DNA of 64,000 bases from Fibrobacter sp. (lineage in GTDB: Bacteria; Fibrobacterota; Fibrobacteria; Fibrobacterales; Fibrobacteraceae), in contig JAILDK010000037.1 in the NCBI GenBank assembly GCA_024689485.1, positions 1 through 64,000 on the forward strand. Reading direction: 5' to 3'. Positions within the stretch are counted from its first letter, which is position 1; every line of letters begins with the position of its first letter. Under the pieces are notes generated by a model that saw only the letters and a program-made list of their open reading frames with translations, was not told where the DNA came from and did not search any database. This document shows, piece after piece, positions 24,125 to 61,596 of this stretch. The position numbers were made by a program, and so were the translations under genes.

Positions 24125-25049
24125 GTTTAGAGCTCAACTCCTGAATGATGCCGTCCGCAAGTCCAATCGTTGGAACGATGATTTCCGAAGCTCGTGTCGC
24201 CCGTGCAATCGAAAGAAAGATCTGGGCTGCGGGAACGATGACGTCGGCACGATTCGGTCGCAGATTAAACTTTTCCATGCGTTCCGCGTAATCGATGGAC
24301 GAAAGTTGGCGGTAAAGCCCTTCCAACTGTGACACGGTAAGACGATTGGTGCGGCGCGCTTTTTTCGGCACCAAGCGGTAAAGCTTGTTGATGTTTCCGC
24401 CCGAGCCGATAATCGTTACACGGCTCTTGGTACCGACCATCTGACGGATTTCATCGCTCATATCATCGACGGAATCCAAGTCGACAAGACCGCTCAACAG
24501 TCGAAGCGTCCCCACGTTAAAACTGCGACTTCCCATAAATTTGTTTTGGGCGATAACGCTGATCTCCGTAGAACCTCCACCGACATCCACACATAAAAAG
24601 GTACCCTCCGGCTTGCCTTTCTTTTCGGAAGACGAGAGGAACTTTTCGGTATGATTGTCGTAGATGACACGGGCTTCTTCGTCCCCGGAAATCAGTTCGA
24701 TATCGATCCCTGTGCGACGACAAATGCGACGTAACACCTTACGCCCATTCTTGGCGTCACGCAGGGCAGAAGTCGCACAGGCACGGTATTTGGAAACTCC
24801 GTAAATAATCATGAGCTGTTTAAAAGCTTTGATCATTCGAAGGAAGAGCTCTTCGCGTTCTTCACTGATTTTTCCATTTTGGAAAACATCCATTCCAAGG
24901 CGAAGCGGAAAACGGATAAACTGTTCCTTTTGAAGATTCAACGAACCGTCACTTTGGAACGTTGCCGTTTTAATGAGCAGGCGGGCGGCATTGGAACCGA
25001 TGTCGATAGCGGCCAAACGGACTGGATTTTTGGGTGTCTTATTTTTCAT
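24105..25049 (-). CDS. ppx: Ppx/GppA family exopolyphosphatase/guanosine pentaphosphatase
   Basis: AAIDIGSNAARLLI, ATSALRDAKNG, VDVGGGSTEI, IGSGGNI; start at MKNKTPKNPV overlapping the ppk end. Confidence 0.88.
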   Translation of the reverse strand: MKNKTPKNPVRLAAIDIGSNAARLLIKTATFQSDGSLNLQKEQFIRFPLRLGMDVFQNGKISEEREELFLRMIKAFKQLMIIYGVSKYRACATSALRDAKNGRKVLRRICRRTGIDIELISGDEEARVIYDNHTEKFLSSSEKKGKPEGTFLCVDVGGGSTEISVIAQNKFMGSRSFNVGTLRLLSGLVDLDSVDDMSDEIRQMVGTKSRVTIIGSGGNINKLYRLVPKKARRTNRLTVSQLEGLYRQLSSIDYAERMEKFNLRPNRADVIVPAAQIFLSIARATRASEIIVPTIGLADGIIQELSSKLTPSLS

Positions 25050-27120
25050 TCTTGTTTTCCAGAGCCTTGTAGTGTTTATAAAGTTCTTCCTGCGATCTAA
25101 AGGTTCCATAGCGATTGCGCATGCCCTGCTCGACGATTAGGCGCGCCTCCCGCTTGATCGCGATATCGTAAACCGGAGAATAGACTTCTATCCGATGATC
25201 CAAATTTCGCGGCATCCAGTCGGCAGATCCGACAAAGACTTTGTAATTGTGATAGCTGCCGTCTTCTTCACCGATATCTAAATGTTCCAAGTCCACGCCA
25301 TTGGCAAAAATCAAGATACGGGAATGTTCTAGGTAGCGGTCGATGATCGCATTCACGCGCAGATTTCCGCCGAGTTCCGAGAGCGAAGGGACAAGCGAGC
25401 AGTTGCCACGTACCAAAAGATCCACTTTAACACCGGACGCGGCCGCTTCGTAAATCTTTTTCACCATCTTTTCATCGGTCACATGGTTGAGCTTGCAAAG
25501 GATATATGCGGGGTATCCCAACTGGTGATTGCGAATTTCTTGCTGGATAAGCCGCGTCAATTCTCGGCGCATATCGTTCGGCGAGACCAGTAGTTCCTTG
25601 AACTTGACCGACATATAAGGCTTTTCGATAAATCCAAACAAACGTTCGACATCCTTGACGATCGGCAAGCGTGCCGTGAACTGCAAAAAGTCCGTATAAG
25701 CGCAAGCGTTCCCTTCGTGGAAATTCCCGGTAGAAATGCAAGCGACGTTTCCTTTTTTTGCGGTAATCAGTGTAACCTTGGAATGGATTTTTAAGCCTTC
25801 CACTCCCATGATCACGTGGATGCCCGCGTCCGCCATTTTTTTGCACCAGTCGATATTCGATTCTTCATCGAAGCGAGCAAGCAGTTCTATAACGACCGTC
25901 ACCTTTTTTCCGTTGCGAGCCGCGGCGATCAATGCGCCGATCACCTTCGAATCCTTGGCGAGCCTATAAAGGGTCGTTTTGATTCCTTTGACTTCCGGGT
26001 GTATGGCGGCTTCGCACAAAAGGTTGATGTAGGCATCAAAAGATTGATACGGTACATGAAGGAATCGGTCTCTTTCGCGGACCGCATTCAACAAGACCGG
26101 TTGCATCGCCCAGGCGGGCATGACCGAAGGCCAGGGAGAATATTCAAGTTTTGCGCCTTTCAAAGATCCAAAACGGGGGAACTTCATCAGGTCTTTGTGA
26201 TTTTGATGACGGCCAGAAGGAAGCATCGCATCTACGGAAGAAAGCTTCAAGTGCACCAAGAGTTTTTTCAGCACATCGCGAGGCATCTGTTCTTCATAAA
26301 TGAATCGCACCGGTAGGCCGTTCTTGCGGTTCTTCACTCCGCGAGCAATCTTTTGCAAGGTGCTGCCTTGAATGTTGCTGTCGAGTTCCATTTCTGCATC
26401 TTTCGTCACCTTAAACGACCAAGCTTCCACCTGGTCAAAATCCGAACCCGGGAAAAGATACGGCAACGCGCAGCGGACAACATCGTCCAAGTACATCACG
26501 GAATGTTCCGTCGTCGTTCCGGATTTTGCATCGGGGAGCGTCACAAAACGTCCAAACTTTTTGACCGGGATTTCCACGATGGCGTAATTTTTACGGCAAG
26601 CCTGACTTCTCTTGGATTTTTTCATCAGTCGGATGACAAAATGGATGGCATCTTCCGATAAGGAATTGACGCCTTTGACAGAAGAAAGCCATATCGGGAA
26701 AAGGCTGCCGGCGAGTTTAGAGAGGCAGTATGTTTTCACCGACTCTTGTTGGGATTCATTCAGTTCTTTTTCGGAAAGAAGGTGAATGTGCTTTTGGCGA
26801 AGCCCTTCGAAAACATCCGAAACCGTCTTCTTGAAAACCTGAGAATATTTCGCGTTGAGTTCGGCGATTGTATGAAGAGTCTGTTTGCTACGTTGTCGCA
26901 GTTCTTTCGAATTTTTACCCGTAAGATCCGTGATGCGGTTGAGCGTCGCGACACGGACTCGGTAAAATTCATCCAAGTTGTTGCTGTAGATTCCCAAAAA
27001 TTGCAGACGTTCCATCAGCGGAATTTCAGAGCGTTCCGCTTCGGCGAGGATACGCCTGTTAAAAAGCATCCACGACACATCTCTTTCGATATAGTTTTCT
27101 TCCGTTAATTTCATGTCCAC
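25039..27120 (-). CDS. ppk: Polyphosphate kinase 1
   Basis: ERDVSWMLFNRRILAEAE, IHPEVKGIKTTLYRLAKDSKVI, GLKIHSKVTLI, STGNFHEGNA. Confidence 0.95.
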   Translation of the reverse strand: MDMKLTEENYIERDVSWMLFNRRILAEAERSEIPLMERLQFLGIYSNNLDEFYRVRVATLNRITDLTGKNSKELRQRSKQTLHTIAELNAKYSQVFKKTVSDVFEGLRQKHIHLLSEKELNESQQESVKTYCLSKLAGSLFPIWLSSVKGVNSLSEDAIHFVIRLMKKSKRSQACRKNYAIVEIPVKKFGRFVTLPDAKSGTTTEHSVMYLDDVVRCALPYLFPGSDFDQVEAWSFKVTKDAEMELDSNIQGSTLQKIARGVKNRKNGLPVRFIYEEQMPRDVLKKLLVHLKLSSVDAMLPSGRHQNHKDLMKFPRFGSLKGAKLEYSPWPSVMPAWAMQPVLLNAVRERDRFLHVPYQSFDAYINLLCEAAIHPEVKGIKTTLYRLAKDSKVIGALIAAARNGKKVTVVIELLARFDEESNIDWCKKMADAGIHVIMGVEGLKIHSKVTLITAKKGNVACISTGNFHEGNACAYTDFLQFTARLPIVKDVERLFGFIEKPYMSVKFKELLVSPNDMRRELTRLIQQEIRNHQLGYPAYILCKLNHVTDEKMVKKIYEAAASGVKVDLLVRGNCSLVPSLSELGGNLRVNAIIDRYLEHSRILIFANGVDLEHLDIGEEDGSYHNYKVFVGSADWMPRNLDHRIEVYSPVYDIAIKREARLIVEQGMRNRYGTFRSQEELYKHYKALENKNEK

Positions 27121-41429: not shown

Positions 41430-42613
41430 TAGACATTCCTCGAAAGGATGAGCGAGACATTGCAACCGCCGAAGCCAAAGGAATTGCTCATGCAGGTCTG
41501 CAGGCGTTCCACGGTTTCACCGGTCTTCACAAGGCGAATCTGCGGGAGCGCCGGATCGCGTTCACCGTCAAAGAAGTGCATCGGGAGAACGTGTTCCGCA
41601 TTTTCATCCGAAAGGGTGAGGCAGCAGAAAGCGGCTTCAAGAGCGCCAGCGGCACCGAGCGTGTGACCGGTCAGGCCCTTTGTGGAGCTCGCCGGAGTGT
41701 CGTTACCAAAGACGCGGTTCACGGCGACGCTTTCCATCGCATCGTTCAGCTTGGTACCGGTTCCGTGCAAATTGATGTAGTCGATATCGGCTGCGGAAAT
41801 GCCCGCATCCTTCAAAGCCTTGTCGATTGCCTGCACAGCGCCTTCGCCGTCGGCACGCGGAGCCGTCACGTGATCTGCATCTGCACTTTCGCCGATGCCG
41901 ACGACTTTGAACTTTGCCTGCCCCGGCTTTTGAGAAATGAGGAAGTAGGCCGCGCCATCGCCAATCGTGAGACCGGTTCTGTTCTTGCTAAAAGGAATCG
42001 TCGGGGAAAGCGAAACCGCTTCCAAGGAATCAAATCCGAGAACGACCGTTTCCGTCGCAATGTCCACACCGCCGACAATCGCCGCGTCGCAGAAACCCGC
42101 TTCGAGCCAATTTCTTGCCGAAGCAAAGGCGCTCGCACTCGAAGCGCAAGCCGACGAATGGGTAAAAATCGGGCCCGTCAAACCGAAACGTTTGGCGATG
42201 TATTCCGCAGCAAAATCTGCCTGCTGCATTTTCAGTTCGTAATTTTCCGGATAAGCGCCCGTCTTTTGAAAAGAATCGAGGCCCGCGAGAGAAGCTTCCG
42301 AACCGTTATCGCTTGAACCGATAAACACACCGATGCGGTCTGCGCCGTATTCCTTTACCGCTTCGCAAACCGAAGTTTCGATCTGCGCAAGAACCACTTC
42401 CGAAAGACGGTTCACATGGTTGTCGTAATAAGCGTCCTTTACCTGCGGCAAGGAGCTCTGCGGAATTTCGACGACATAACGTTCCTTTTCGCGGAACTTC
42501 TTCTGTACAAATTCCGGGCGGGTGCCATTCTTCAAAGCCTGCCAAATGGTCTTTTTGTCAGAACCTAAAGCAGAGCAAAGTGCAAAGTCATGAATGTACA
42601 AGGGAGCGTTCAT
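41429..42613 (-). CDS. Beta-ketoacyl-ACP synthase (second, aryl polyene cluster)
   Basis: THSSACASSASAFASA active-site Cys, NLHGTGTKLNDAMES, LTGHTLGAAGALEAA. Confidence 0.92.
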   Translation of the reverse strand: MNAPLYIHDFALCSALGSDKKTIWQALKNGTRPEFVQKKFREKERYVVEIPQSSLPQVKDAYYDNHVNRLSEVVLAQIETSVCEAVKEYGADRIGVFIGSSDNGSEASLAGLDSFQKTGAYPENYELKMQQADFAAEYIAKRFGLTGPIFTHSSACASSASAFASARNWLEAGFCDAAIVGGVDIATETVVLGFDSLEAVSLSPTIPFSKNRTGLTIGDGAAYFLISQKPGQAKFKVVGIGESADADHVTAPRADGEGAVQAIDKALKDAGISAADIDYINLHGTGTKLNDAMESVAVNRVFGNDTPASSTKGLTGHTLGAAGALEAAFCCLTLSDENAEHVLPMHFFDGERDPALPQIRLVKTGETVERLQTCMSNSFGFGGCNVSLILSRNV

Positions 42614-43206
42614 TCTTTTATCTCGGATTCAATTTGGTAGCTGTAATGGCGAAGCAGATTCTGCAACACGATCTTATTTTCGTTCTTTTCCATTTTGAGG
42701 ATTGCCGTTTGACCGTCAAAAAGGGTGCGCACCAAAACGTTCCCTTCCTGAGATTCGGCAAACGTGAATCCCGCGGCATCAAAATTTTTTTGCAAGACCG
42801 AAGCGGGATAGTAGCAGAACTGAATATCTGCAATCACATATTCGGGCTTCATCTTTTCCGCGTTCATCCATTTGCTGTTGAACGCAAGAGAATCTTTCGT
42901 GTAAACGAGTTCCGCGATCGTATTTCCCATGGAGCTGAAAAGCATCATGTGCACGGTCGTGTCGTTCAAGAGCATCCAGGATTCACCGGAGAATTTCTTT
43001 TCGCCGTAAGAGCCTGTCATCAGCTGGTTTTCTTCGATGGAAATTCCGCTGTTTTGCGGCTCGATCAGCTGAATGTAGCGGGCGTCCGAGTAGTAGATTT
43101 TAGCAGAATTCCCCGCCACCGCAGAATGCGACGTGCACGCCGTCAGGGCAATAGCTCCCAACGCAGCCAAGGCTTTTACGAAATTCTGAATCTTACCTAC
43201 CCACAT
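42610..43206 (-). CDS. DUF3261-like lipoprotein (aryl polyene cluster)
   Basis: Lipobox ALTACTS; position between KS and MMPL exporter as in APE clusters. Confidence 0.7.
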   Translation of the reverse strand: MWVGKIQNFVKALAALGAIALTACTSHSAVAGNSAKIYYSDARYIQLIEPQNSGISIEENQLMTGSYGEKKFSGESWMLLNDTTVHMMLFSSMGNTIAELVYTKDSLAFNSKWMNAEKMKPEYVIADIQFCYYPASVLQKNFDAAGFTFAESQEGNVLVRTLFDGQTAILKMEKNENKIVLQNLLRHYSYQIESEIKE

Positions 43207-43230
43207 TTTTGTAGCAATATAGAAAGTGAA

Positions 43231-45546
43231 TTAATCTCGTGTGAACGGTGAAAGGAGGAAGCACGCGGAAATGCCGAGCAACACGGCCAAGCCCAAAACC
43301 GACACAGGGGCAAATCCGCTGAGCGAAAGAGTCCCGAACGAAATCAAGGTCGTCGCTGCGGAAAGCATCACGGCAAAAGCCGTTGAATCCGTGTGATTTC
43401 GCGCATCCTTAAAGAAAAGCGCGTAGTCGATTCCAATGCCGAGAACGAGAATCAAGCCGGTAATTGCAAAGAAATTAACCGGAATTTGCAGATAACCGAA
43501 CATCGACAGCGTAAAGAGGCAGGCGAGCACCGGAGCGCGCACAATTCGCAAGGAATTTCGCCAAGAAAACACGAACGAAAGAATAAAGCAGACCGCAAAA
43601 TACGCAAAGGCGACGAGCGAAAGCGCCGTGAGCGAAAGTTCCGTCAAAGCGGAGTTCACTTCCTGCATCTTGTTCACCGCGTAGATGCCGTTCGACGGAT
43701 CTGCGTAATCCTTCGGGTTGAACATTTCGGACGCGTGCATCGGAAGGACGGCGCTGTAATACTTGCCCGAAATTTCTCCGATCCAGAGCATGTCGCGGAC
43801 GCTCGCCAGCTGTTCCGGAAGAGCTTCGAATTCCGCAGTGTTTTCATCCATTTCCACGGCGGCAAAGAGCTTTTTGCGCGGATTTTTGACAGGCTTGATC
43901 TGGAGCTGTTTGCAAAGGTCCTTGTAGCGGAGAGGAAGCGCTCTTGAAAGCAGAGAATCCAGAGCGGTCCGTTTTGCCGAAGACGGTGAAAAATCCGAGA
44001 AGGCGAGGTGCGACTTCAAAAGGGTGTCCCGTTCCGCTTCCCGGAGCTTTTCCGTCAGCGTTTCTTCCTTTTGCAGCACTTCTTCGACCGAGCTTCCGCT
44101 GACGATGAAATACGTCGGAGCGATGCCCGAATTCATCCACTTCGCAACCTTCATTTCCGAAGCGCCGAGTTCCGGGGCGACCGTGTACATGGAGCGGATA
44201 TCCGTCTGCACGTTCAGCTGAACAAAGCCCGGAACAAGAGCACCAGCCGCTACCACAAAAATGATGTAACGGGCGATCTTCGGAATGCGTTCGAGCTTGG
44301 AGTACCCCGCAAGAATCACCTGGGCGATCTTCAGCGGGAACTTCTTTTCGTTTTGCAACTTTTCCGACACGACCGGGAACACGAGCAAAACAGAAAGGAG
44401 CGCACTGGCAAGACCCACCATCGAGAAGAACGCCATCTGACGGAGAATCGGAAAGTCCACAATCACGAGGGCGATGTAGCTGAGTTCCGTCGTCATAAAG
44501 CCGAGGAGCATGCTCTTGACCTGAGCTTCCTTATCGGCAAAATGGTGCAGGGCGTAGTCGATGCTCACACCGATCACGCTCGTTCCAAAGATAAACGTAA
44601 AGATGTGAATTTCATGGAAAGTCGCAAGCGTTGCGCCTGTCGCCGCAAGAATCGCCACCGCAATCGAACTGAGGGTCGTTACAATGGGAATCGCCGAACG
44701 GAAAACAAGCAGCAACAACAAAAGAACCGCCGCCGTCGAAATCCCCGAAATCCAACCGATTTCAACCTGAGCCTGTTTGGAACTCGAATAGCTGTGGAAC
44801 GGAACGCCGGATTTTTCTACGCGCAAGTTGGGGAATTCTTCCTGCAATTCTTCGATCGTATCATCCAAAATGCCAAGAATGTGATCACCCGAAGCAAACG
44901 CCGAAGCGTCTTGGGAAAGTTCCGCATTGATGAACACATAGGTTCTGCCGGAATCCTGCACGGTCAGCCTATCATCGCGGAGCGTCAAAGCGCTCGAAGA
45001 CATCGGCGTCATCGAAAGCAAACGTTCCTGCGCCGACTGTGAAAGCAAATACGGATCTTCTTCGAGGCGCGAAAGATCGCTCATCGGGAATGCCCCGTAA
45101 ACACGGGACAGCGCCTTGTTGTAAAAATGGTCCGCGACTTCAGCGTCTTCCATCGCAAGGATCGCCGGATCCTGCATCGAAAAACGACGGTCAAAAAGGA
45201 ACTTGGAAATTTCGTCCATCGACAAAGCGTCCACCATCCAAGAGGCGGAACGGATCTGCTTATTCGCTAAAAGCGTGTGACCGATGCGGTCCGCCGCCGT
45301 CTTTGCCACCGTGAAATCCGAGTCTCCGACAAAGAGCATCATCCGGGAAGAAGTTCGAGCCGTCAGGACATTTTCCGCCGCATGGATTTCCGGAGTCATT
45401 TCAGATTCCGGAACGATCGAATACAAATTCTTATCGATCTTCCACGGGTACGCAATCACCACCGCGACAATCAGCGCGATGTGCAAAAACGCCCAAAGGC
45501 CCACGTTAAAGTAACGCTTCTTACTTTCCGGACTGTTTAAATTCAT
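43231..45546 (-). CDS. MMPL/RND-family exporter (aryl polyene cluster)
   Basis: 771 aa with two TM bundles, FIFGTSVIGVSIDYALHHF and LVLGIGIDYALFFKD. Confidence 0.9.
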   Translation of the reverse strand: MNLNSPESKKRYFNVGLWAFLHIALIVAVVIAYPWKIDKNLYSIVPESEMTPEIHAAENVLTARTSSRMMLFVGDSDFTVAKTAADRIGHTLLANKQIRSASWMVDALSMDEISKFLFDRRFSMQDPAILAMEDAEVADHFYNKALSRVYGAFPMSDLSRLEEDPYLLSQSAQERLLSMTPMSSSALTLRDDRLTVQDSGRTYVFINAELSQDASAFASGDHILGILDDTIEELQEEFPNLRVEKSGVPFHSYSSSKQAQVEIGWISGISTAAVLLLLLLVFRSAIPIVTTLSSIAVAILAATGATLATFHEIHIFTFIFGTSVIGVSIDYALHHFADKEAQVKSMLLGFMTTELSYIALVIVDFPILRQMAFFSMVGLASALLSVLLVFPVVSEKLQNEKKFPLKIAQVILAGYSKLERIPKIARYIIFVVAAGALVPGFVQLNVQTDIRSMYTVAPELGASEMKVAKWMNSGIAPTYFIVSGSSVEEVLQKEETLTEKLREAERDTLLKSHLAFSDFSPSSAKRTALDSLLSRALPLRYKDLCKQLQIKPVKNPRKKLFAAVEMDENTAEFEALPEQLASVRDMLWIGEISGKYYSAVLPMHASEMFNPKDYADPSNGIYAVNKMQEVNSALTELSLTALSLVAFAYFAVCFILSFVFSWRNSLRIVRAPVLACLFTLSMFGYLQIPVNFFAITGLILVLGIGIDYALFFKDARNHTDSTAFAVMLSAATTLISFGTLSLSGFAPVSVLGLAVLLGISACFLLSPFTRD

Positions 45547-46120
45547 AAGTCAGAATGTTTCCTTCACCGTCGACGAGTTCCACCTTTTTCAAATCCTTGT
45601 CCCCTTCGAGGACAATCGAGGCAATGGCTTTTTGAATGGTCTTTTCCTTGGGAACAAGGCCCACCTTCCAGCCTTTTTTCTGCTGCAGAAAATACAGTTC
45701 AAAGCGATTCTGCAAAACGGCGATGTTTCCACCGAGAACGGCGCGCATCGAAGTCGCAATTTCGCGGAAGATCACATTGTCCGCAGAAGCCATTTCCGTT
45801 TTGGAACCGTCCGGATTTGTCTGCACAACGCCCGAATCCGAAATCACGAGTTTGGACGCAAAAGGTTTTTCCATGTCCCACGTGATTCCGTTCTTCTGCG
45901 AAATTTCAAACTTGCCCGAAGAGGTAAACGTGCGTTTGATCTTGACCACGGTACGCTTTTGCGTAAAGGTTCCGCTGACCGTTTCCGAAGCGGAAAGGAC
46001 CTGCATCACCTTTTGGACTTCCGGAGATTCCAAATTCGCCGGAGACTTCCAAATCGCTGCGTCCGCGGCAAAGAGTGTCGCTCCGCAAATCAAGAGTGCC
46101 GTTAAAAAAGACTTATGCAT
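45521..46120 (-). CDS. LolA-like outer-membrane lipoprotein carrier
   Basis: Signal peptide MHKSFLTALLICGATLFA; GTFTQKRTVVKIKRTFTSSGKFEISQKNGITWDMEKPF. Confidence 0.85.
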   Translation of the reverse strand: MHKSFLTALLICGATLFAADAAIWKSPANLESPEVQKVMQVLSASETVSGTFTQKRTVVKIKRTFTSSGKFEISQKNGITWDMEKPFASKLVISDSGVVQTNPDGSKTEMASADNVIFREIATSMRAVLGGNIAVLQNRFELYFLQQKKGWKVGLVPKEKTIQKAIASIVLEGDKDLKKVELVDGEGNILTYEFKQSGK

Positions 46121-46550
46121 TTTCTTCCTTTGCCAAAGCCGCCTTGACCTTTTCCACAAAATCCGGCGGCGTCGAGAACATCGATTCCTTTGTCGAAATC
46201 TTGACCGCCATCTGCGTGCTTTCTGCCTTGGTAATCACCTTGCCCGTTTCAAGGTCGATGAATCTGTACTTGAGCTTCATGCAAACATCATATTCGATGA
46301 GAGAAACTTCCACGCGTACCTTCTGCATAAAGCGGAGCGGTCGAATGTACTTGAGGCTCATTTCGACGACAGGCCAAGCGTAGCCCGCCTTTTCCATTTC
46401 GTAGTAGTCGTACTTGATTTTGGTCAGCAAAGCACAGCGGGCGGTTTCCATGTACTTCACATAGTTTCCATGCCAAACAACATTCATCGGATCCAAGTCA
46501 TAAAATTGGACTTCGATATCCGCGTAGGCTTTCAAGATTTTTTCGCTCAT
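46113..46550 (-). CDS. Acyl-CoA/ACP thioesterase (4-hydroxybenzoyl-CoA thioesterase-like)
   Basis: VQFYDLDPMNVVWHGNYVKYMETAR. Confidence 0.88.
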   Translation of the reverse strand: MSEKILKAYADIEVQFYDLDPMNVVWHGNYVKYMETARCALLTKIKYDYYEMEKAGYAWPVVEMSLKYIRPLRFMQKVRVEVSLIEYDVCMKLKYRFIDLETGKVITKAESTQMAVKISTKESMFSTPPDFVEKVKAALAKEENA

Positions 46551-47509
46551 GTCGATTCTCCTTTCTGCCAGAAGTTGTAGAAATTATACCACTGATACGG
46601 ATGTTCCAAGCAGAACTTTTCCAAGTGCGAAGCGTATTCCACGGCGAGATTTGCCATCTGCTGTTTTTGTTCGGAACGTTTTCCCCCGAGTTCTGTCTTG
46701 GAGCGGATAATGTGGAATTCATAGGGCGACGTGATGTCTAAATCTTTTTTGCGGAACGCAAAAATGAAATAGACAGGCGCCTTCAAAATGTTGGCGAGGG
46801 CAAAGGAACCTTCCGGGAACTCGGCGGCGTCGCCTAAAAAGTTCAACGGAATAAAACGGTTCTGCGAATTCGCCGAAGTTCTGTCGCCCGCGATCGCGAC
46901 GAGGTTTCCCGCCTGGATTTTTTCGCGCATGTCGATTGCCGTATCGACGCCGATCGAATTCGCGTCAAAGCTGTTCGTCATCAGCTCGGGATTCAGTTCG
47001 CGGAGAAGAGCGTTAAAGCACTTTGTTCCCGAAAAATCGACGACCGGGAAAACCTGAAAATCGCGTTTTGTATGCTCTTTGTGATAGCCCGTCAGGGAAC
47101 GCATCGCTTCGATGTTTCCCAGGTGCGAGCAAAGGATAAAAGCGCCTTTACCGCTGTCGAGCAAGTTCACCAAATCGTCGATGTCATCGTTCTGCGTTTC
47201 GAGTTCTGAAAGAGACATCTTCCCAGCCCAGCCTCGAATCTTTTCGATCATCGAAAGGGCAAAGGCGAGAATGTGACGGTACACGGCAAAAGGCGGAATC
47301 TTTTTGCCCTTCATCTTCGACACATGTTCCAGGAACAGGCGCGAACGTTTGCGTACCGGAGCGGCCCCCAAGTAAAAGAAGAACACGACAACGGCGACAA
47401 TCAATTCTACGAGTTTACGCGGCAGGTGAATCGTCACCCACAGCATAAAACGGAATTCCCACGCCGTCTTCGAGGCTTCTTCAATTTGAGACCAGTGTTC
47501 TTCAGCCAT
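46547..47509 (-). CDS. Lysophospholipid acyltransferase (LpxL/HtrB-like)
   Basis: LCSHLGNIEAMRS, NLVAIAGDRTSANSQNR; EEHWSQIEEASKTAWEFRFMLW N-terminus. Confidence 0.82.
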   Translation of the reverse strand: MAEEHWSQIEEASKTAWEFRFMLWVTIHLPRKLVELIVAVVVFFFYLGAAPVRKRSRLFLEHVSKMKGKKIPPFAVYRHILAFALSMIEKIRGWAGKMSLSELETQNDDIDDLVNLLDSGKGAFILCSHLGNIEAMRSLTGYHKEHTKRDFQVFPVVDFSGTKCFNALLRELNPELMTNSFDANSIGVDTAIDMREKIQAGNLVAIAGDRTSANSQNRFIPLNFLGDAAEFPEGSFALANILKAPVYFIFAFRKKDLDITSPYEFHIIRSKTELGGKRSEQKQQMANLAVEYASHLEKFCLEHPYQWYNFYNFWQKGEST

Positions 47510-48242
47510 GTTTTCTCTTCTGCAATAAAAGCTTGGGAAGACGCAAAAGCATGCCGCAGCAAAGGCGTGTGTGCAGCAGCGAAATTTCCACGTTATCGTG
47601 CAACAGGCGGAAGTTCGAAACGCCGTTTTCCGGGTAAATCACCTTGACCGGGTAGAAGAACATCTTGACGTTTGCCCAGGAAAGGCGCACGAGGATTTCA
47701 ATGTCAAAGCCCATGCGGAGCGTCTTCAAATTTTTCAGCACCGGCACCGTCGCCTGCAGCGGGTAAACGCGAAAACCGCACATCGCATCCGGAATCTGCT
47801 TTGAAAGCGTTTCGATTGCAACCCAGAAGTTCGTAATCTTACGGCCCATTTCGCGTTCCTTGGGAACGCTTGCGTCGTACTGCGGAAAGCCTCCGATAAG
47901 ACCTTCCGGATGTTTACGCGCCGCCTTCAGCAAGAACGGTATCATCGAAGGATCGTGCTGGCCATCGGCATCGATTTGCAGAGCGTGGGTAAAGCCCGCC
48001 TTCAGAGCTTCGGTACAGGCGGTGCGAACAGCGCCGCCCTTTCCCATGTTCACACTGTGCGAAACAACCATCACGTTCGGAATTTCTTGACCGACTCTCT
48101 GCAGCACCTGCAAAGCTTCGGGCGTGTTACCGTCATCGACAATGATCACCGGCAAATTCTGAGCGTGCAAACTTTGAACAACCGCACGGACCGTGTTTTC
48201 GTGGCGGTAAACGGGGACAATAGCGCAGGGTTTGAATTCCAT
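47502..48242 (-). CDS. Family 2 glycosyltransferase
   Basis: CAIVPVYRHENTVRAVVQSL, VIIVDDGNTPEA, ALQIDADGQHDPSMI. Confidence 0.9.
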   Translation of the reverse strand: MEFKPCAIVPVYRHENTVRAVVQSLHAQNLPVIIVDDGNTPEALQVLQRVGQEIPNVMVVSHSVNMGKGGAVRTACTEALKAGFTHALQIDADGQHDPSMIPFLLKAARKHPEGLIGGFPQYDASVPKEREMGRKITNFWVAIETLSKQIPDAMCGFRVYPLQATVPVLKNLKTLRMGFDIEILVRLSWANVKMFFYPVKVIYPENGVSNFRLLHDNVEISLLHTRLCCGMLLRLPKLLLQKRKHG

Positions 48243-50551
48243 TATGCGTTTTCCTTTTTCAGCACAATCGTGCCGCCGGAACAGGTTTTACCATCTTCTC
48301 CCGTAATCTTGAATGCGAGCTTTCCCGTATCCGGGGAATAAGTCTCTTCGATCGTCACCGGGTGTTCCGGGAAAATCGGATTCGAGAATTTGACGCGCTG
48401 CATTTTTTCGATTGTCGTCGGGAGCTTCATAAAGCCTCGGAAGAAACGCAGAATCAAATCGATCTGGACTACAGCCGGGAGCAACTTGAATTCCGGGAAG
48501 TGACCATCGTAATAATCGCTCGTCGAGGGGATTACCATTTTGACGGTCAGCACGTTGCCTTCCAAGTGATACTTGAGAATTTTGAAATTCGGGGATTCGG
48601 GAATTTCGAACAAAGCCTGTACCTCGCGCGTTTTGATTTTTCCCATGCCATCTTGCGGAAGCTCTTCCAGGTAGCGCCATTTTTTCGGCTGCACCGTGTT
48701 TTCGAGGAATCCCGAAAGATGCTGCTTAAAGAAAGCGTTGATGTCTTTTTTCTCCTCGCCCTTAAACCGAGCGTTACCTTCGTCGTTCAGCACAATCGCC
48801 GCAGCGAGGAACTGGCGCTTGCCCGTCATCGGCACCACGCGCACATCGCGCACGACTCCGGTCTGACGCAAACGGTTTTCCACTTCCGGAAGGGAAATGC
48901 GCTTTTCTTCGATCTTCACAATCGAATCGGCACGGCCCATCAGCTGGAACGTTCCGTCGTCTTCAATCTTTCCCAGGTCACCCGTCACAAAGCCGCCGAT
49001 ATCCGTGTAAGAGGAATCGATTTTCAGGCAACCGTTTTCCGCAAACGAAATCTTGTTCGGCGGAACGGGCGTCCACAGCTTCTTTTCCCGAATACGGCGG
49101 GTCGCAATCGCACCGGCTTCCGTGCAGCCGTAAATTTCCTGCACGCCGTTGCCCGAAAGTTCTTCGACTCTGTTCGCCACTTCATCTGGCAAGAGTCCAC
49201 CGGCAGAAAGCCAGAAAGGCGGCTTCTTGAACGGCAAAGGTTCTTTGCGGTTGGCGGCAAGGCGTTTTAAGAAGGCAGGGCTCGCCACGATCACAGCGGG
49301 TTCCTTCACAATCTGTTCCAGTTCTTCCGGGAATTCAAAACGCACGCGACGAATCGGAAGCCCCGCAGAAATCGGCACAAAGATCGAGAACGCCATGCCG
49401 TAAATGTGGTGATGGTTCACCGTCATGTAAAAGTTGCGGTTCGCAAATCCAGCGGCAAAACGTTCCGCGAGAGCGTTCGCTTCGTTTTCATATTGCCAGC
49501 CTTCCTTCGGGATTTCCTTTGGAATGCCGGTCGTGCCAGACGTGTACATCGCAGCCTTCGCCGCGTTGATGTCAAACGGCGTCCACGTATTTTTGGCCGT
49601 GTAGGTTTCGATGATCTTCGGAATCTGCAAAGCGCCTTCGGCTCCGGTATCGTTCAAGAAGCCGACGTCCGGCTTGCGAATTTCACGGATGAATTCCGGC
49701 TGGCGATTCGCGGAGAACAAAATCTTTTTTTGACTCTGGAAAAGCGCAAAGATCGCGACGAGGAAGTAGTAGACGTCGTCCGCGTTCAAGATCCAAGCGG
49801 TGTAAGGTTCCGCTTCGACCGCCTGGCGAACCTTGGAAACGTCCGCCTTGAAGTCTGCCCACGTTTTGACGTCGCCAGAAAGTCCCGCGCCGCTGAAGCA
49901 GACGACGGAATCGTCCGGGCGAGAGTCCGCTTCAATTTTCGAAAATGGAATGTAAGATTGTAATTGACTTTGTTTCATTTTACGAACTCCAATTTCAGCT
50001 ACAAAAAGAATTCCCATCAAGATGTATGAAATCAGACCGTTGTACAGCGACCAGATCTTCTCGTCTGCACACAGTACCGTCCACAGCGCAACGGATCCGT
50101 TCAGAATAAAAAAGATGCACCAGGTGAGCGTCACCCGGTCGCAGTAGCGTTCGACAGAACTCCTGTCCGCAGTCTGCAAAATTCGCTTGTCGGCAAAAGT
50201 CGCCAAGCGAAAAACAAAGCTCGGCTTTCGAAAGAGAGTCGCGCCAAAAAAGAAAAGCATCCCGACGTTCACAAGAACCGGATAGAACTTGAGAACGAGG
50301 GCGTTATCCAGCGCAAAAGCGGCTACACCACAAGCCAAAAGAAAGGCTACAAAGCAGCCTTCCTTCAGTCGCGATGCCGCTCCCGGCTGTTTTTTTCGCG
50401 AAGCTGATATTAAATGAAACGCCGCGAGAAGAAGCAACAAAATGCTCAACTTGCGCGGCGAAAGTCCCCAGAAGCGGAGACCGCAGAATACCAGAATCGG
50501 ATAAAGAACAGAAAGAACGGCGAAGAGGATCTTCCCCGCTACAGCCTTCAT
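48242..50551 (-). CDS. Fusion: COG4648-like membrane region + AMP-dependent acyl ligase + hotdog dehydratase (aryl polyene cluster)
   Basis: N-terminal ~200 aa TM helices; ligase AAMYTSGTTGIPKEIPKEG, GRADSIVKIEEKRISLPEVE; C-terminal YYDGHFPEFKLLPAVVQIDLILRFF hotdog. Confidence 0.85.
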   Translation of the reverse strand: MKAVAGKILFAVLSVLYPILVFCGLRFWGLSPRKLSILLLLLAAFHLISASRKKQPGAASRLKEGCFVAFLLACGVAAFALDNALVLKFYPVLVNVGMLFFFGATLFRKPSFVFRLATFADKRILQTADRSSVERYCDRVTLTWCIFFILNGSVALWTVLCADEKIWSLYNGLISYILMGILFVAEIGVRKMKQSQLQSYIPFSKIEADSRPDDSVVCFSGAGLSGDVKTWADFKADVSKVRQAVEAEPYTAWILNADDVYYFLVAIFALFQSQKKILFSANRQPEFIREIRKPDVGFLNDTGAEGALQIPKIIETYTAKNTWTPFDINAAKAAMYTSGTTGIPKEIPKEGWQYENEANALAERFAAGFANRNFYMTVNHHHIYGMAFSIFVPISAGLPIRRVRFEFPEELEQIVKEPAVIVASPAFLKRLAANRKEPLPFKKPPFWLSAGGLLPDEVANRVEELSGNGVQEIYGCTEAGAIATRRIREKKLWTPVPPNKISFAENGCLKIDSSYTDIGGFVTGDLGKIEDDGTFQLMGRADSIVKIEEKRISLPEVENRLRQTGVVRDVRVVPMTGKRQFLAAAIVLNDEGNARFKGEEKKDINAFFKQHLSGFLENTVQPKKWRYLEELPQDGMGKIKTREVQALFEIPESPNFKILKYHLEGNVLTVKMVIPSTSDYYDGHFPEFKLLPAVVQIDLILRFFRGFMKLPTTIEKMQRVKFSNPIFPEHPVTIEETYSPDTGKLAFKITGEDGKTCSGGTIVLKKENA

Positions 50552-50808
50552 TTCTTTTCTTCAGTACCCTGAGCGATATCGTAGATTCCGTCCACCACGT
50601 CCTGCAGCGTACGCATGCTCTTGAACACATCCGGGTCAATGTTGCGCGGAATGAACGTCTTGAGCTTCACGATCAGGTCTACGGCGTCGATGCTGTCGAG
50701 GTTCAGGTCTTCGTAAAGACGAGCTTCCGGGACAACCTTTTCCGGTTTCAGTTCAAAATCTTCGATGAGGGCTTCACGGATTTTGTCGTAAATCTGTTGC
50801 TTTTCCAT
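50548..50808 (-). CDS. Acyl carrier protein (aryl polyene cluster)
   Basis: DLNLDSIDAVDLIVKL phosphopantetheine site. Confidence 0.92.
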   Translation of the reverse strand: MEKQQIYDKIREALIEDFELKPEKVVPEARLYEDLNLDSIDAVDLIVKLKTFIPRNIDPDVFKSMRTLQDVVDGIYDIAQGTEEKK

Positions 50809-50811
50809 GAC

Positions 50812-51087
50812 TTAGTCCTTTTTGTTGGCAGAGATGTATGCGGCAAGAGCGTCGATCGAAGCAAAGTGCTTACGCGTTTCTTCGTTCACCGTCGAGAAGG
50901 AGACACCAAAGTTGTCCTTGATGGCGATACCGAGTTCGAGAGCGTCAATGCTATCGAGTCCGAGACCGCGACCTTCCTTATTCTGGCCAAACAACGGGGC
51001 ATCGTCTTCGATGTCAGCCGGTGTGATATCCTCAAGTTCCAGTGCCTTGATCAGCACTTCCTTAATTTGTGTGTTCAATTCAGACAT
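50812..51087 (-). CDS. Acyl carrier protein (aryl polyene cluster)
   Basis: GLGLDSIDALELGIAIKDNFG phosphopantetheine site. Confidence 0.92.
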   Translation of the reverse strand: MSELNTQIKEVLIKALELEDITPADIEDDAPLFGQNKEGRGLGLDSIDALELGIAIKDNFGVSFSTVNEETRKHFASIDALAAYISANKKD

Positions 51088-51137
51088 ATTGTTTTCCGTC
51101 CCAATAAAAAATGTGGACTCAAATATAAATAAAAAAA

Positions 51138-51788
51138 TTAAGAAACTGTTTCAACAAACTTACGACAAGTTAATTCAGGCGAATTTGTCTTAAAAATCGC
51201 GCTGCCGACGACAAAAATATTGGCGCCAGCCTTCTTCGCTTCCAGAATATTGTCGAGTTTGACACCGCCATCGATTTCGATATCGAGTTCCGGTTTCATT
51301 TCGCGCAAGGCACGGATTTTATCCAAACAATACGGGATCAGGCTCTGTCCACCAAATCCCGGATTCACAGACATGACAAGGACCATGTCCACAGAGTCGA
51401 GTACCCACTTGATGCTTTCAATCGGAGTCGCCGGGTTGATGCTCACGGCGGGCTTTGCACCGAGTTCGCGAATGCGGTTCAAAAGGCGGTCCAAATGAAT
51501 CGTCGATTCCGCCTGCACCGTCACATAACGCGCTCCGATTTTGACAAATTCGTCTACAAAAAGCTCAGGATTGTCAATCATCAAATGGCAGTCGAGGGGA
51601 AGCTTTGTCGCCTTACCGATCAAGCCCGAAATTCCCGGGCCAAAACTGATGTTCGGCACAAAGTGACCGTCCATGATGTCGAGGTGAACAAGTCCCGCGC
51701 CGCCGTTTTCAATAGCGGTGAGTTCGGACTGCAGGTTGAGGAAGTTTGCGTTCAAGACGCTCGGGGCAATGATTTGAGCTTGTTTCAT
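51138..51788 (-). CDS. rpe: Ribulose-phosphate 3-epimerase
   Basis: APSVLNANFLNL, HLDIMDGHFVPNISFGP, MSVNPGFGGQ, VDGGVK-like IDGGVKLDN. Confidence 0.95.
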   Translation of the reverse strand: MKQAQIIAPSVLNANFLNLQSELTAIENGGAGLVHLDIMDGHFVPNISFGPGISGLIGKATKLPLDCHLMIDNPELFVDEFVKIGARYVTVQAESTIHLDRLLNRIRELGAKPAVSINPATPIESIKWVLDSVDMVLVMSVNPGFGGQSLIPYCLDKIRALREMKPELDIEIDGGVKLDNILEAKKAGANIFVVGSAIFKTNSPELTCRKFVETVS

Positions 51789-51834
51789 AATTCCAAATAT
51801 AGGTATTGAGTGAAAATTATTTTTTTGTTATTAT

Positions 51835-51851
51835 TTGTTCACAACGAACAA
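51835..51851. promoter_or_regulatory. Inverted repeat next to the Shine-Dalgarno of the histone-like/CBM48 gene
   Basis: TTGTTC-acaac-GAACAA directly followed by AGGAGG and ATG at 51864. Confidence 0.35.
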
Positions 51852-51863
51852 GGAGGTTGATTT

Positions 51864-52397
51864 ATGTCAACACCAAAGAAAACCACAACAAAAGTGACGA
51901 AGGGTACACAGTGCGCAAAGTGCGCTCCGAAGGCGAGCACGAGCACCAAGACCACCGCAAAAACCGCCACCAAGACTGCAGAAAAGACTGTTTCGGCTAA
52001 GAAGACCGCTGCAAAGGTTGCTCCGGCCAAGAAGACCGCTGAAAAAGCGACTGCAAAGAGCACTGTCAAGAGCTCCGCTAAGAGCGCTGTCAAGGCTTCC
52101 GCAAAGGCAACCGTGAAGAAGACCGCTCCGAAGGCTTCCAAAAAGGCTCTCGAAGAAGTCGTGTTCAACGTCTACTCCCCGGATTCCAAGTCCGTCGAAG
52201 TCGCTGGTGAATTCAACAACTGGACCCCGGCCAAAATGAAGAAGGGCGAACAGGGCGTGTGGAGCATCAAGCTGAAGCTCGCCGCAGGTACTTACCAGTA
52301 CAAGTTCGTTTTCGATGGCAGCTGGGAAATCGACCAGGCTAACCCGAACCGTGTTCCTGACGGTCAGGGTGGCGAAAACAGCGTCAAAAATGTCTAA
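51864..52397 (+). CDS. Histone H1-like Lys/Ala/Thr-rich tail fused to AMPK-beta/CBM48-like domain
   Basis: First ~95 aa KKTAAKVAPAKKTAEKATAKSTVKSSAKSAVKASAKATVKK; C-terminal VVFNVYSPDSKSVEVAGEFNNWTPAKMKKGEQGVWSIKLKLAAGTYQYKFVFDGSWEIDQANP. Confidence 0.85.
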   Translation: MSTPKKTTTKVTKGTQCAKCAPKASTSTKTTAKTATKTAEKTVSAKKTAAKVAPAKKTAEKATAKSTVKSSAKSAVKASAKATVKKTAPKASKKALEEVVFNVYSPDSKSVEVAGEFNNWTPAKMKKGEQGVWSIKLKLAAGTYQYKFVFDGSWEIDQANPNRVPDGQGGENSVKNV

Positions 52398-53652
52398 TCC
52401 GATCTTTACGGAAAAAACAATTCGAGAGGGTGTCGCAAACTACGGCACCCCTTTTTGGCTTTATGACCGAGCAACGATCGAAAAGCGCGTTCAGGAACTC
52501 AAGTGCTTCGATACCGTTCGTTTCGCTCAAAAGGCTTGCCCGAACCTTTCCATCATTTCGATTGTCCGCAAAGCCGGTGCAGTCGTAGACGCCGTCAGCG
52601 CGGGAGAAATTGTTCGTGCTCTCCGTGCGGGCTATAAAGGTGGCGAAAGCGATAAGCAGGTCCCGCAGATCGTTTATTCTGCAGACATTTTCGACCACGA
52701 TGCGATTGAGCTCGTGAAAAAGTACAACATCCATGTGAACGTCGGTTCTGCGGATATGATCCAGCAGCTCGCCGACGCAGGCGTTCGTTCGAACCTGACT
52801 CTCCGCGTGAACCCGGGCTTTGGCCACGGTCATTCGAAGAAGACGAATACGGGCGGACCGCTTTCGAAGCACGGCGTTTGGCATTCCCAGTTGAAGGACT
52901 GCGTGAAGCTCGCCCAGGCAAACGGCATGTGGATTACCGGTCTGCACATGCACATCGGCAGCGGTACGGATTTTGAACACCTCGCCACGGTCTGCGACGC
53001 CATGCGCGACGCCTCCCGTCGTCTCGGTTCCCATATCCGCATGATTTCTGCCGGCGGCGGCCTTCCGATTCCGTACAAGGAAGAAGAAAAGGGCAACCGC
53101 ATCGATGTTCAGGCCTATTACGACCTTTGGGACAAGACCCGCAAGGACATCGCCCAGTCCGTCGGTCACGACGTGGCTCTCGAAGTCGAACCGGGCCGCT
53201 ACATTGTCGCCGAAAGCGCCGTTCTCGTCGCTGAAATCCGCGCCGTGAAGAAGCAAGAAGACAAGCTCTTCTACCTCGTCGACGCAGGCTTTAACGATCT
53301 CGTCCGCCCGTCCTTCTACGGATCTTACCACGGCATTTCGATCGTCTCCAAGGACGGTCGTGAACTCGGCCCGGAACAGGATGTGATCGTCGCAGGCCCG
53401 CTCTGCGAATCCGGTGACGTCTTTACGCAGGAAGAAGGCGGCTACGTGGTCACACGTAAGCTCCCGACCGCCCAGGTTGGCGACTTCCTCGTTCTGCACG
53501 ACGCAGGTGCTTATGGCAGCGCCATGTCCAGCAACTACAACAGCCGCCGTTTTGCTCCGGAAATTCTCCAGAACAACGGCAAGCTGGAAGTCATCCGCGA
53601 ACGTCAAACGTTCGACCAATTGATGGAAAACGAAAAGATCGTGACCCTTTAA
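52390..53652 (+). CDS. lysA: Diaminopimelate decarboxylase
   Basis: Start MSNPIFTEKTI at 52390, 8-nt overlap with the previous CDS; FAQKACPNLSI, HMHIGSGTDF, EPGRYIVAESAVLVAEI, HDAGAYGSAMSSNYNSR. Confidence 0.9.
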   Translation: MSNPIFTEKTIREGVANYGTPFWLYDRATIEKRVQELKCFDTVRFAQKACPNLSIISIVRKAGAVVDAVSAGEIVRALRAGYKGGESDKQVPQIVYSADIFDHDAIELVKKYNIHVNVGSADMIQQLADAGVRSNLTLRVNPGFGHGHSKKTNTGGPLSKHGVWHSQLKDCVKLAQANGMWITGLHMHIGSGTDFEHLATVCDAMRDASRRLGSHIRMISAGGGLPIPYKEEEKGNRIDVQAYYDLWDKTRKDIAQSVGHDVALEVEPGRYIVAESAVLVAEIRAVKKQEDKLFYLVDAGFNDLVRPSFYGSYHGISIVSKDGRELGPEQDVIVAGPLCESGDVFTQEEGGYVVTRKLPTAQVGDFLVLHDAGAYGSAMSSNYNSRRFAPEILQNNGKLEVIRERQTFDQLMENEKIVTL

Positions 53653-58977: not shown

Positions 58978-61596
58978 TTACACGACGTGACGCACGTGAC
59001 GGTTGAACCAGGAGACGAACGGAGAGCAGATGCACATGGACGAATACGTACCGATGAGCACGCCGAAGGTCATCACCAAGCCGAAGTCACGGATCGAGGA
59101 ACCACCCATCACAGCGAGGATCACGCACACGAAGAGAGTCGTGAGAGACGTGATGATCGTACGGCTGACGCACTGGGAAATGGATTCATCAATCGTGTTG
59201 TCGAAGTCCGCAGTGCCCTTGAGACGGACGTTTTCACGGATACGGTCGAAGTTCACGATAGTATCGTTCACCGAGTAACCGATCATCGTGAGGAGTGCTG
59301 CTACGAGAGCGCCGTCCACCGAGAGACCGAGGAGAGAAATAAAGCCGATCGTAATTGCCGTATCGTGGACAAGGCCAACCACAGCGCCAAGACCGAAGCC
59401 AAGGCCGAGCTTGCCAAAGCGGAACCACACGTACAAGCAGATTGCGAGCCATGCGAAGAGAACGGAGAGGATTGCATTGAAACGGAGTTCGTCACCGATC
59501 GTCGCACCCACTTCATCCTGGGAAAGAATCGTAACGCGGTCATCGGAATCGATAGCCTTGATCACGTCTGCACCCTGTTCGCTCTTCACGGAAACTTCAT
59601 AAGCGTTAGCAAGAGAAGTACCGCCGACGACACGCACCGTACCGTCCTTCACGTTGAACTTGGCGAGAACATCGTTCAAGTCCTGAATGTGATCCTGTGT
59701 ATCGTTGTACTGAACACGGAACACGGTACCACCGGTGAAGTCGATGCTGAAGTTGAAGCCCTTCGTCAAAGCGAGAGCGACAGAAGCAATGATCAAGATG
59801 ATCGAGACAATGCGGAACTTGCCAGCGTGCTTCATCACGGAGAACTTGGCGTTGTTCAGAGCAGCCACACCGCTACCGATCGAGATCGTGTTGGAATCCT
59901 GCTTAGCGAGCTTGATATCGAAGATAGCGTGGGTCACCGTGAGAGCGGTGAACATGGAAGCGGCGATACCGATCATCAAGGTGAGACCGAAGCCCTTCAC
60001 CGAGCCCGTACCGATCTTGTAAAGGATGAGAGCGGTGAGGAACGTCGTCAAGTTGGAGTCGAAGATCGCGCTGAAAGCACGTTCATAACCCTTCGAGATC
60101 GCAGCGCGAGCCTTGTTGCCAGCGCGGAGTTCTTCACGGATACGTTCGAAAATAATCACGTTGGCGTCGATCGACATACCGATCGTCAAGACCATACCAG
60201 CGATGCCCGGAAGAGTCAGCGTTGCATTGAATGCCGAAAGAACTGCAGCCGTGATCAGAGCGTTGCAGATAAGACCGGCACTAGCGACGAGACCACCGAA
60301 GCGGTAGTACATAATCATGAAGATAACCGTGATCAGAATACCGATCAAAGCGGAACCGAAACCAGACTTGATGTTGTCTTCACCGAGAGTTGCACCGATC
60401 GTGCGGCTTTCAATGATGTTCATCGGAGCCTTGAGAGCGCCAGAACGGAGAACGACTGCGAGGCGGTTTGCTTCAGCCATGTCGTCGAGACCCGTAATCT
60501 GAGCTTCGCCGTTCGGGATGCGGTCGCGGATCACCGGAGCGCTGATCACCTGTTCGTCGAGGACGATGGCCATCTGCTTGCCGATGTTTGCAGCGGTCAC
60601 AGCGCCAAAGCGCTTCGGGCCGATGCCAGAGAACTTGAGGCTCACAGCCACTTCGCCGGAGTTCGTACCATCGCTAACGCGGTACGGGCGAGCGTCGGAG
60701 ACATATTCACCGCTCATTTCAGCGCGGCGCTTCAAGAGATAAAGACGCTTTGCCTTGATCACGGAGCCGTTCGGGGTTTCAAAGCCCGAGCCCCATGCGA
60801 AGACCACGTCGTGCGGAATGAGGCTCTGGACGGTGCGGTCGTTCAAGATGCGCTTGATGACTTCCACCTGTTCCTGAGCGACGAAGCCGCCATTGCCGAA
60901 CGAAAGGTAGAGAGCGGAAAGAGCCGTGCCTTGGGTTGCGGTCGGAGCTGCAGCGGAGTCCACCTTTGCGGAATCAGCCTTGGCAACCGTGTCGGTCTTC
61001 ACAGCGTTACCGGCGAAGAGTTCTGCGTCGGAAAGCGTGTCTGCCTTAGCCGGAGCTGCGGCAGCCTTTACCGTATCCGCCACAGTGCTGTCTGCCTTCG
61101 TCGAATCTTCGATGGCGCCGCGACCGAGGAGGTAGTTGTCGATCATCGAAATGACCTGGCCGAACTTTTCCTGTTCTGCAAGAATCTTGAATTCAAGCTT
61201 TGCCGTAGAACCGACGAGAGCCTTTGCCGTGGAATCATCCACACCCGCCAGTTCGACATTGATGCGGTCGTTGCCGGACGGAGAAATCTGCGGTTCGGAA
61301 AGACCGAACTGGTCAACGCGGTTACGGACGATTTCAAGCGACTGAGCCTGGATGTCCTTGATGTCTTCGTCCTTGAGACCCTTGCCGTCGATCTGGAGCG
61401 TGATGCTCGTACCGCCAGCGAGGTCGAGGCCGAAGTTCATCGCCTTACCGGCAACCTTCGGGTTTTGCTTGATGTATTCCTTCTTTGCGTCACCCGATTT
61501 AGAGTGAACTCGAATGGACGGGATAATCGACCATGCGGCAATAAGGATGACTGCGAGAATGATGATCTCGCGCATTCCAAATAATTTTTTCTTCAT
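58978..61596 (-). CDS. secDF: Fused SecD-SecF protein translocase subunit
   Basis: MNFGLDLAGGTSITLQIDGKG (SecD), GMSIDANVIIFERIREELR, then FNFSIDFTGGTVFRVQY (SecF), GYSVNDTIVNFDRIREN. Confidence 0.95.
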   Translation of the reverse strand: MKKKLFGMREIIILAVILIAAWSIIPSIRVHSKSGDAKKEYIKQNPKVAGKAMNFGLDLAGGTSITLQIDGKGLKDEDIKDIQAQSLEIVRNRVDQFGLSEPQISPSGNDRINVELAGVDDSTAKALVGSTAKLEFKILAEQEKFGQVISMIDNYLLGRGAIEDSTKADSTVADTVKAAAAPAKADTLSDAELFAGNAVKTDTVAKADSAKVDSAAAPTATQGTALSALYLSFGNGGFVAQEQVEVIKRILNDRTVQSLIPHDVVFAWGSGFETPNGSVIKAKRLYLLKRRAEMSGEYVSDARPYRVSDGTNSGEVAVSLKFSGIGPKRFGAVTAANIGKQMAIVLDEQVISAPVIRDRIPNGEAQITGLDDMAEANRLAVVLRSGALKAPMNIIESRTIGATLGEDNIKSGFGSALIGILITVIFMIMYYRFGGLVASAGLICNALITAAVLSAFNATLTLPGIAGMVLTIGMSIDANVIIFERIREELRAGNKARAAISKGYERAFSAIFDSNLTTFLTALILYKIGTGSVKGFGLTLMIGIAASMFTALTVTHAIFDIKLAKQDSNTISIGSGVAALNNAKFSVMKHAGKFRIVSIILIIASVALALTKGFNFSIDFTGGTVFRVQYNDTQDHIQDLNDVLAKFNVKDGTVRVVGGTSLANAYEVSVKSEQGADVIKAIDSDDRVTILSQDEVGATIGDELRFNAILSVLFAWLAICLYVWFRFGKLGLGFGLGAVVGLVHDTAITIGFISLLGLSVDGALVAALLTMIGYSVNDTIVNFDRIRENVRLKGTADFDNTIDESISQCVSRTIITSLTTLFVCVILAVMGGSSIRDFGLVMTFGVLIGTYSSMCICSPFVSWFNRHVRHVV

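What the first reader, a model, noticed from the sequence alone, without database searches (positions are those of the whole stretch)
51864..52397. Histone H1-like basic tail fused to a glycogen-binding (AMPK-beta/CBM48-like) domain
The 177-aa protein has about 95 N-terminal residues made almost entirely of K, A, T, S and V (AKKTAAKVAPAKKTAEKATAK...), as in bacterial H1-like/HctB-type DNA-binding tails, and a CxxC near the N-terminus (QCAKCAPK). The C-terminus resembles a compact AMPK-beta/CBM48 E-set (VEVAGEFNNWTPAKMKKGEQGVWSIKLKLAAGTYQYKFVFDG). A polycation tail on a glucan-binding module could tether glycogen to the nucleoid, to polyphosphate or to the envelope. I do not know of a described system with this architecture.
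Basis: partly seen in the sequence, partly recalled or inferred. Interest (0 to 1): 0.78.

Follow-up and report, generated by a model that had tools for sequence, protein, structure and literature searches.

The report
Likely glycogen-to-chromosome tether in Fibrobacter
This small Fibrobacter protein joins a glycogen-binding domain to a long lysine-rich, histone-H1-like tail, a pairing kept across the whole bacterial family, and it may tie the cell's glycogen particles to its DNA, a job for which we found no described bacterial protein.

Summary
The ORF is real: 51864-52397, + strand, 177 aa, with a strong ribosome-binding site. Residues ~96-177 are an AMPK-beta/CBM48 module (PF16561 E 1.6e-13; best structural match is the AMPK beta-1 glycogen-binding domain, 1z0n). 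Four glucan-contact residues are invariant or nearly so. Residues 1-95 are a predicted-disordered lysine/alanine tail.

The architecture is not a one-off. It is present in 102 of 111 Fibrobacteraceae genomes, and the nine without a hit are incomplete. It sits between divergent rpe and downstream lysA across the order. Over 36 orthologs the tail varies in sequence and length (32-133 aa) but keeps 723 Lys against 4 Arg. In this genome only GlgB and this protein carry CBM48.

Polyphosphate kinases are missing from many genomes that have the protein, so polyphosphate is unlikely to be the conserved partner. AlgP, PhaF and PhaM position polyP and PHA granules with similar tails. The best reading is therefore a glycogen-granule protein tethering glycogen to the nucleoid. 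Glucan binding is supported by homology; DNA as the tail's ligand is inferred. No glycogen counterpart was found in the literature searched.

The parts
51864..52397 (+). Complete gene: H1-like tail + AMPK-beta/CBM48 module, 177 aa
   Evidence: orthologs at the same place in relatives
51864..52148 (+). Lysine/alanine-rich disordered tail (aa 1-95), net about +24, no arginine
   Evidence: AlphaFold pLDDT mostly below 50; short DNA repeats of 12-30 bp inside
52149..52394 (+). AMPK1_CBM/CBM48 glucan-binding module (aa 96-177); W120, K147, W154 and N172 align with AMPK beta-1 W100, K126, W133 and N150
51806..51834 (+). Candidate sigma-70-type promoter (TTGAGT-17-TATTAT, TG before the -10); weak evidence
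   Evidence: 2 found, 0.9 expected by chance
51850..51856 (+). Ribosome-binding site AAGGAGG (approximate coordinates), kept in same-genus orthologs
51138..51788 (-). rpe, ribulose-phosphate 3-epimerase, divergent neighbour, order-wide synteny
52390..53652 (+). lysA, diaminopimelate decarboxylase; start codon overlaps the end of the CBM gene by 8 bp; order-wide synteny

Best explanation
The protein is a cytoplasmic glycogen-granule-associated tether. The C-terminal AMPK-beta-type CBM48 module grips branched alpha-glucan on the glycogen particle. The long, disordered, lysine-only tail binds DNA without sequence specificity, as the KPAA/H1-like tails of AlgP, PhaF and PhaM do, and so spreads glycogen particles over the nucleoid. 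This would prevent clumping and give each daughter cell a share. Shown here: gene, domains, conservation, synteny and predicted disorder. Supported by homology: glucan binding. Inferred: DNA as the tail's ligand, and the positioning or segregation role.
For: Domain: PF16561 E 1.6e-13; AlphaFold pLDDT about 95 over the module; Foldseek best hit 1z0n, TM-score 0.90 on the target; four of six AMPK glucan-contact residues conserved. Tail: disordered, 723 K against 4 R over 36 orthologs with the background near 55:45, and even lysine spacing in four of five tails tested. It is a rare feature: no other convincing tail match in this genome. Core gene: 102 of 111 family genomes, same locus across the order. 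Glycogen context: GlgC and GlgA in nearly all these genomes; GlgB is the only other CBM48 protein in this genome; the untailed single-domain relative in Pseudoalteromonas sits just before malQ and glgB; F. succinogenes stores glycogen up to 70% of dry weight (PMC10308913). Precedent for the mechanism: AlgP, PhaF, PhaM (PMC9239181, PMC13052382). No signal peptide is evident at the N-terminus (read from the sequence).
Against: There is no binding or localisation data. A polycationic tail could equally bind RNA, ribosomes or membranes. The gene is not in a glycogen operon. In the largest relative genus the module has lost a loop of about 13 residues near the glucan site, so affinity may differ there. 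AMPK contacts L146 and T148 are not conserved. Tails in one genus are only 32-52 residues long, short for a DNA tether.
Confidence: 0.45

Rival explanations
1. Glycogen-particle coat or assembly factor: the module coats the particle and the cationic tail acts as a charged brush or glue that sets particle spacing or clusters beta particles into rosettes, without DNA.
For: Rosette-like alpha particles are reported in F. succinogenes (PMC8116748). Tail length varies freely while charge is kept, as expected for a brush.
Against: Like-charged tails do not glue by themselves. H1-like tails of known granule proteins are thought to act through DNA.
Confidence: 0.22
2. The tail binds RNA or ribosomes (or another anionic surface such as the inner membrane), keeping glycogen near translation or the envelope.
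For: Lysine-rich disordered tails can bind many polyanions; nothing in the sequence selects DNA.
Against: No precedent found among granule proteins with this architecture; no amphipathic or hydrophobic anchor in the tail (few hydrophobic residues).
Confidence: 0.15
3. Glycogen-sensing nucleoid protein or regulator: glucan binding at the module changes how the tail condenses DNA or affects gene expression, or the module delivers the protein to GlgA/GlgB and tunes them.
For: The AMPK beta module acts as a glycogen sensor (abstract of PMC2642990, listed); C. necator PhaM also activates PHB synthase (PMC13052382).
Against: No additional regulatory domain; the tail has no predicted sequence-specific DNA-binding fold.
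Confidence: 0.1
4. Tether between glycogen and polyphosphate granules.
For: PPK1 lies in this same window (25039-27120), and AlgP shows that a protein with such a tail can associate with polyP granules (PMC9239181).
Against: PPK1 is absent from many near-complete genomes with the protein (G006, G007, G008, G009, G011, G016, G021, G037, G038), PPK2 is absent from all of these too, and f3 genomes with PPK1 lack the tailed protein.
Confidence: 0.04
5. The tail is a non-functional low-complexity expansion on an ordinary glycogen-binding module.
For: Short tandem repeats in the tail DNA; tail sequence drifts quickly (41-59% identity in the genus against 84-99% for the module).
Against: Charge, near-absence of arginine and a length of at least 32 aa are kept in every family member read; free drift would turn lysines into arginine and acidic residues.
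Confidence: 0.04

Closest known systems
AlgP of Pseudomonas aeruginosa (polyP granule spacing, PMC9239181)
   Same: Disordered K/A/P-rich H1-like tail with DNA binding, in a protein that associates with a storage granule; tail needed for even granule spacing
   Different: Tail is C-terminal and the helical N-domain is unrelated; granule is polyphosphate; no glucan module
PhaF (Pseudomonas putida) and PhaM (Cupriavidus necator), nucleoid-tethered PHA granule proteins (PMC13052382)
   Same: One protein binds the carbon-storage granule with one end and DNA with a histone-like end
   Different: Granule binding on PHA by phasin-type parts, not by a carbohydrate-binding module; opposite order of domains
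AMPK beta subunit glycogen-binding domain (PF16561; PDB 1z0n, 4yef)
   Same: Same fold; W100, K126, W133 and N150 equivalents kept
   Different: AMPK beta scaffolds a kinase; no kinase partner here and no polycation tail there; L146 and T148 equivalents differ
Bacterial stand-alone 'isoamylase early set domain' proteins, e.g. Pseudoalteromonas WP_118844851.1 next to malQ-glgB
   Same: Small single-module CBM48 protein, in a glycogen-metabolism setting
   Different: 99 aa, no tail
Chlamydial Hc2/HctB H1-like protein (PMC2848022)
   Same: Lysine-rich tail varying in length between strains
   Different: No detectable homology (no such Pfam hit in the tail), no glucan module

Membership tests
AMPK1_CBM / CBM48 glucan-binding modules | Significant profile match and E-set beta-sandwich fold | tested here: met
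AMPK1_CBM / CBM48 glucan-binding modules | Conserved glucan-contact residues (W100, K126, W133, N150 of AMPK beta-1) | tested here: met
   W120, K147, W154, N172; W120, K147 and N172 invariant in 36, W154 at least 90%. L146 and T148 not kept
AMPK1_CBM / CBM48 glucan-binding modules | Binds glycogen or alpha-glucan | not testable with these tools
   Needs a binding assay
Nucleoid-tethered storage-granule proteins (PhaF/PhaM/AlgP type) | One protein with a granule-binding part and an H1-like K/A-rich disordered tail | tested here: met
   granule binding by homology only
Nucleoid-tethered storage-granule proteins (PhaF/PhaM/AlgP type) | Tail binds DNA; loss disturbs granule position | not testable with these tools
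   No experimental data
Nucleoid-tethered storage-granule proteins (PhaF/PhaM/AlgP type) | Sequence homology with the phasin family | tested here: not met
   No phasin hit in Pfam; a resemblance in architecture only, so not filed as a phasin
HctB/Hc2 histone-H1-like family | Profile match of the basic tail | tested here: not met
   No such hit at E<=1
Polyphosphate-associated protein | Co-occurs with polyphosphate synthesis | tested here: not met
GlgB or other GH13 enzyme | Catalytic (beta/alpha)8 barrel | tested here: not met
   177 aa, only the N-terminal module of these enzymes matches

The most novel reading that the evidence does not exclude
First protein known to tether glycogen to a bacterial chromosome: a 'glycogen phasin' that spaces and partitions glycogen particles in Fibrobacteraceae, evolved independently of PhaF, PhaM and AlgP by joining an H1-like tail to a carbohydrate-binding module.
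Probability: 0.42. Interest if true: 0.8.

Novelty: new variant of a known kind. Interest (0 to 1): 0.62.

Why it matters
Positioning proteins are known for PHA and polyP granules, carboxysomes and magnetosomes; a 2025 review of the subject does not mention glycogen (PMC13052382), and a 2021 review says proteins on prokaryotic glycogen are essentially unstudied (PMC8116748). Fibrobacter can hold up to 70% of its dry weight as glycogen (PMC10308913). A conserved, single-copy protein with a glucan module and an H1-like tail makes the question of whether and how bacteria organise glycogen directly testable, and would show a third storage polymer handled by the same trick.

Tried and rejected
CxxC as a metal or redox motif: rejected, not conserved. 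Polyphosphate partner: rejected as the conserved function. Other proteins with this tail in the genome: the only second BLAST hit (E 0.042) lies in an apparent efflux-adaptor lipoprotein, a chance match. Glycogen operon: none here; neighbours are rpe and lysA. Plasmid and phage collections gave only untailed or otherwise different architectures in the hits inspected. A tree of the 80-residue module is too weak at depth to say whether the tail arose once; in it L032 was labelled 'no tail' only because of an upstream start codon (one search shows its tail). Negative literature searches cover open-licence PMC papers only.

Full report
What is there. The window lies in a Fibrobacter-type genome: the nearest named records with the same gene are Fibrobacter sp. 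and F. intestinalis. The reported ORF is real, 51864-52397 on the + strand, 177 aa, preceded by AAGGAGG. It starts 75 bp from the divergent rpe gene, and its end overlaps the start of lysA by 8 bp.

The C-terminal module. Residues 96-177 match AMPK1_CBM (E 1.6e-13) and CBM_48 (E 2.7e-11), both over the curated cut-offs. AlphaFold gives pLDDT about 95 there and a beta sandwich. Foldseek's best hit is the AMPK beta-1 glycogen-binding domain 1z0n, TM-score 0.90 on the target, rmsd 1.5. A profile alignment places W120, K147, W154 and N172 on AMPK W100, K126, W133 and N150 (that these contact glucan in AMPK, and their numbering, is from my own knowledge of the 1z0n/4yef structures). W120, K147 and N172 are invariant in 36 family members and W154 at least 90%. 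AMPK L146 and T148 are not kept. In the largest relative genus about 13 residues between W154 and N172 are missing, so the site may be altered there.

The tail. The first 96 residues hold 26 K, 0 R and 2 acidic residues, and 92% are K/A/T/S/P/V; pLDDT is mostly below 50. In 36 orthologs the tail is 32-133 aa and holds 723 K against 4 R, while nearby genes have K and R about 55:45. Within the genus, tail identity to this protein is 41-59% where the module has 84-99%, so charge and composition are kept while sequence drifts. Lysines are more evenly spread than in shuffles for four of five tails tested. Short tandem repeats in the DNA suggest length change by slippage, as reported for Hc2 (PMC2848022, abstract). 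The CxxC is a local accident.

Distribution. A phylum-wide search found the module in 118 of 168 genomes; my count from that table is 102 of 111 Fibrobacteraceae genomes, and all nine without it are at most 84% complete. Every family member that I read in full has the tail, and so do the two genomes of the sister family and two of a more distant family in the class. More distant relatives carry other N-terminal parts: almost none (G055), a helical mixed-charge stretch (G051), or an apparent membrane anchor (G086, G089). The rpe / gene / lysA order holds across the family and in the sister family, so these are orthologs. The place in the f4 genome examined differs, and the tree cannot say whether the tail arose once.

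Context. This genome has GlgC, a divergent full-length GlgA and a GlgB-like 805-aa frame with two CBM48 matches; that frame and the present protein are the only CBM48 carriers (GlgB is my reading of the 805-aa frame, not separately scanned). F. succinogenes stores glycogen up to 70% of dry weight (PMC10308913). In Pseudoalteromonas an untailed single-module relative lies just upstream of malQ and glgB. PPK1 is absent from many near-complete genomes with the protein and PPK2 from almost all, whereas f3 genomes with PPK1 lack the tailed protein. The conserved partner is therefore more likely glycogen plus something universal than polyphosphate.

Mechanism. The same design, a granule-binding part plus an H1-like tail, is known for PhaF and PhaM on PHA and AlgP on polyP: the tail binds DNA non-specifically and is thought to space granules along the nucleoid (PMC9239181; PMC13052382). 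I therefore propose that this protein attaches glycogen particles to the nucleoid. What is shown: gene, domains, disorder, conservation, synteny, co-occurrence. Homology-supported: glucan binding. Inferred: DNA as the tail's ligand and the positioning role. The main rivals are a coat or assembly factor that sets particle spacing without DNA, and binding of RNA or another polyanion.

Novelty. It would work like a phasin-type tether but is not a member of the phasins (no homology). It is an AMPK-type CBM protein by membership. I found no described glycogen tether in the searchable literature, which lacks most subscription journals, so I call it a new variant of a known kind.

Noticed in passing
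window 42000-51100 (-): Gene cluster with MMPL-type exporter, LolA-like carrier, glycosyltransferase, acyltransferase, AMP-ligase fusion and two acyl carrier proteins: resembles an aryl-polyene/flexirubin pigment cluster (that name is from memory, only some domains checked).
   Followed up: partly
window 25039-27120 (-): Full polyphosphate kinase PPK1, patchily present among close relatives.
   Followed up: partly
window 58978-61596 (-): SecD and SecF fused in one 872-aa protein.
   Followed up: no
L058 1126-1746; L064 1489-2100: Distant Fibrobacterota relatives with a cysteine-rich, zinc-finger/anti-sigma-like N-terminus and an apparent membrane helix in front of the same CBM48 module: glucan module possibly tied to signalling.
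   Followed up: no
L007 1006-1734: CBM48 module behind a long helical mixed-charge N-terminal stretch, a different kind of extension; the gene lies near a glycosyltransferase-like ORF.
   Followed up: no
L028, L030, L031 and other large-genus orthologs: The module has lost about 13 residues between the second tryptophan and the final asparagine, unusual for a CBM48.
   Followed up: partly
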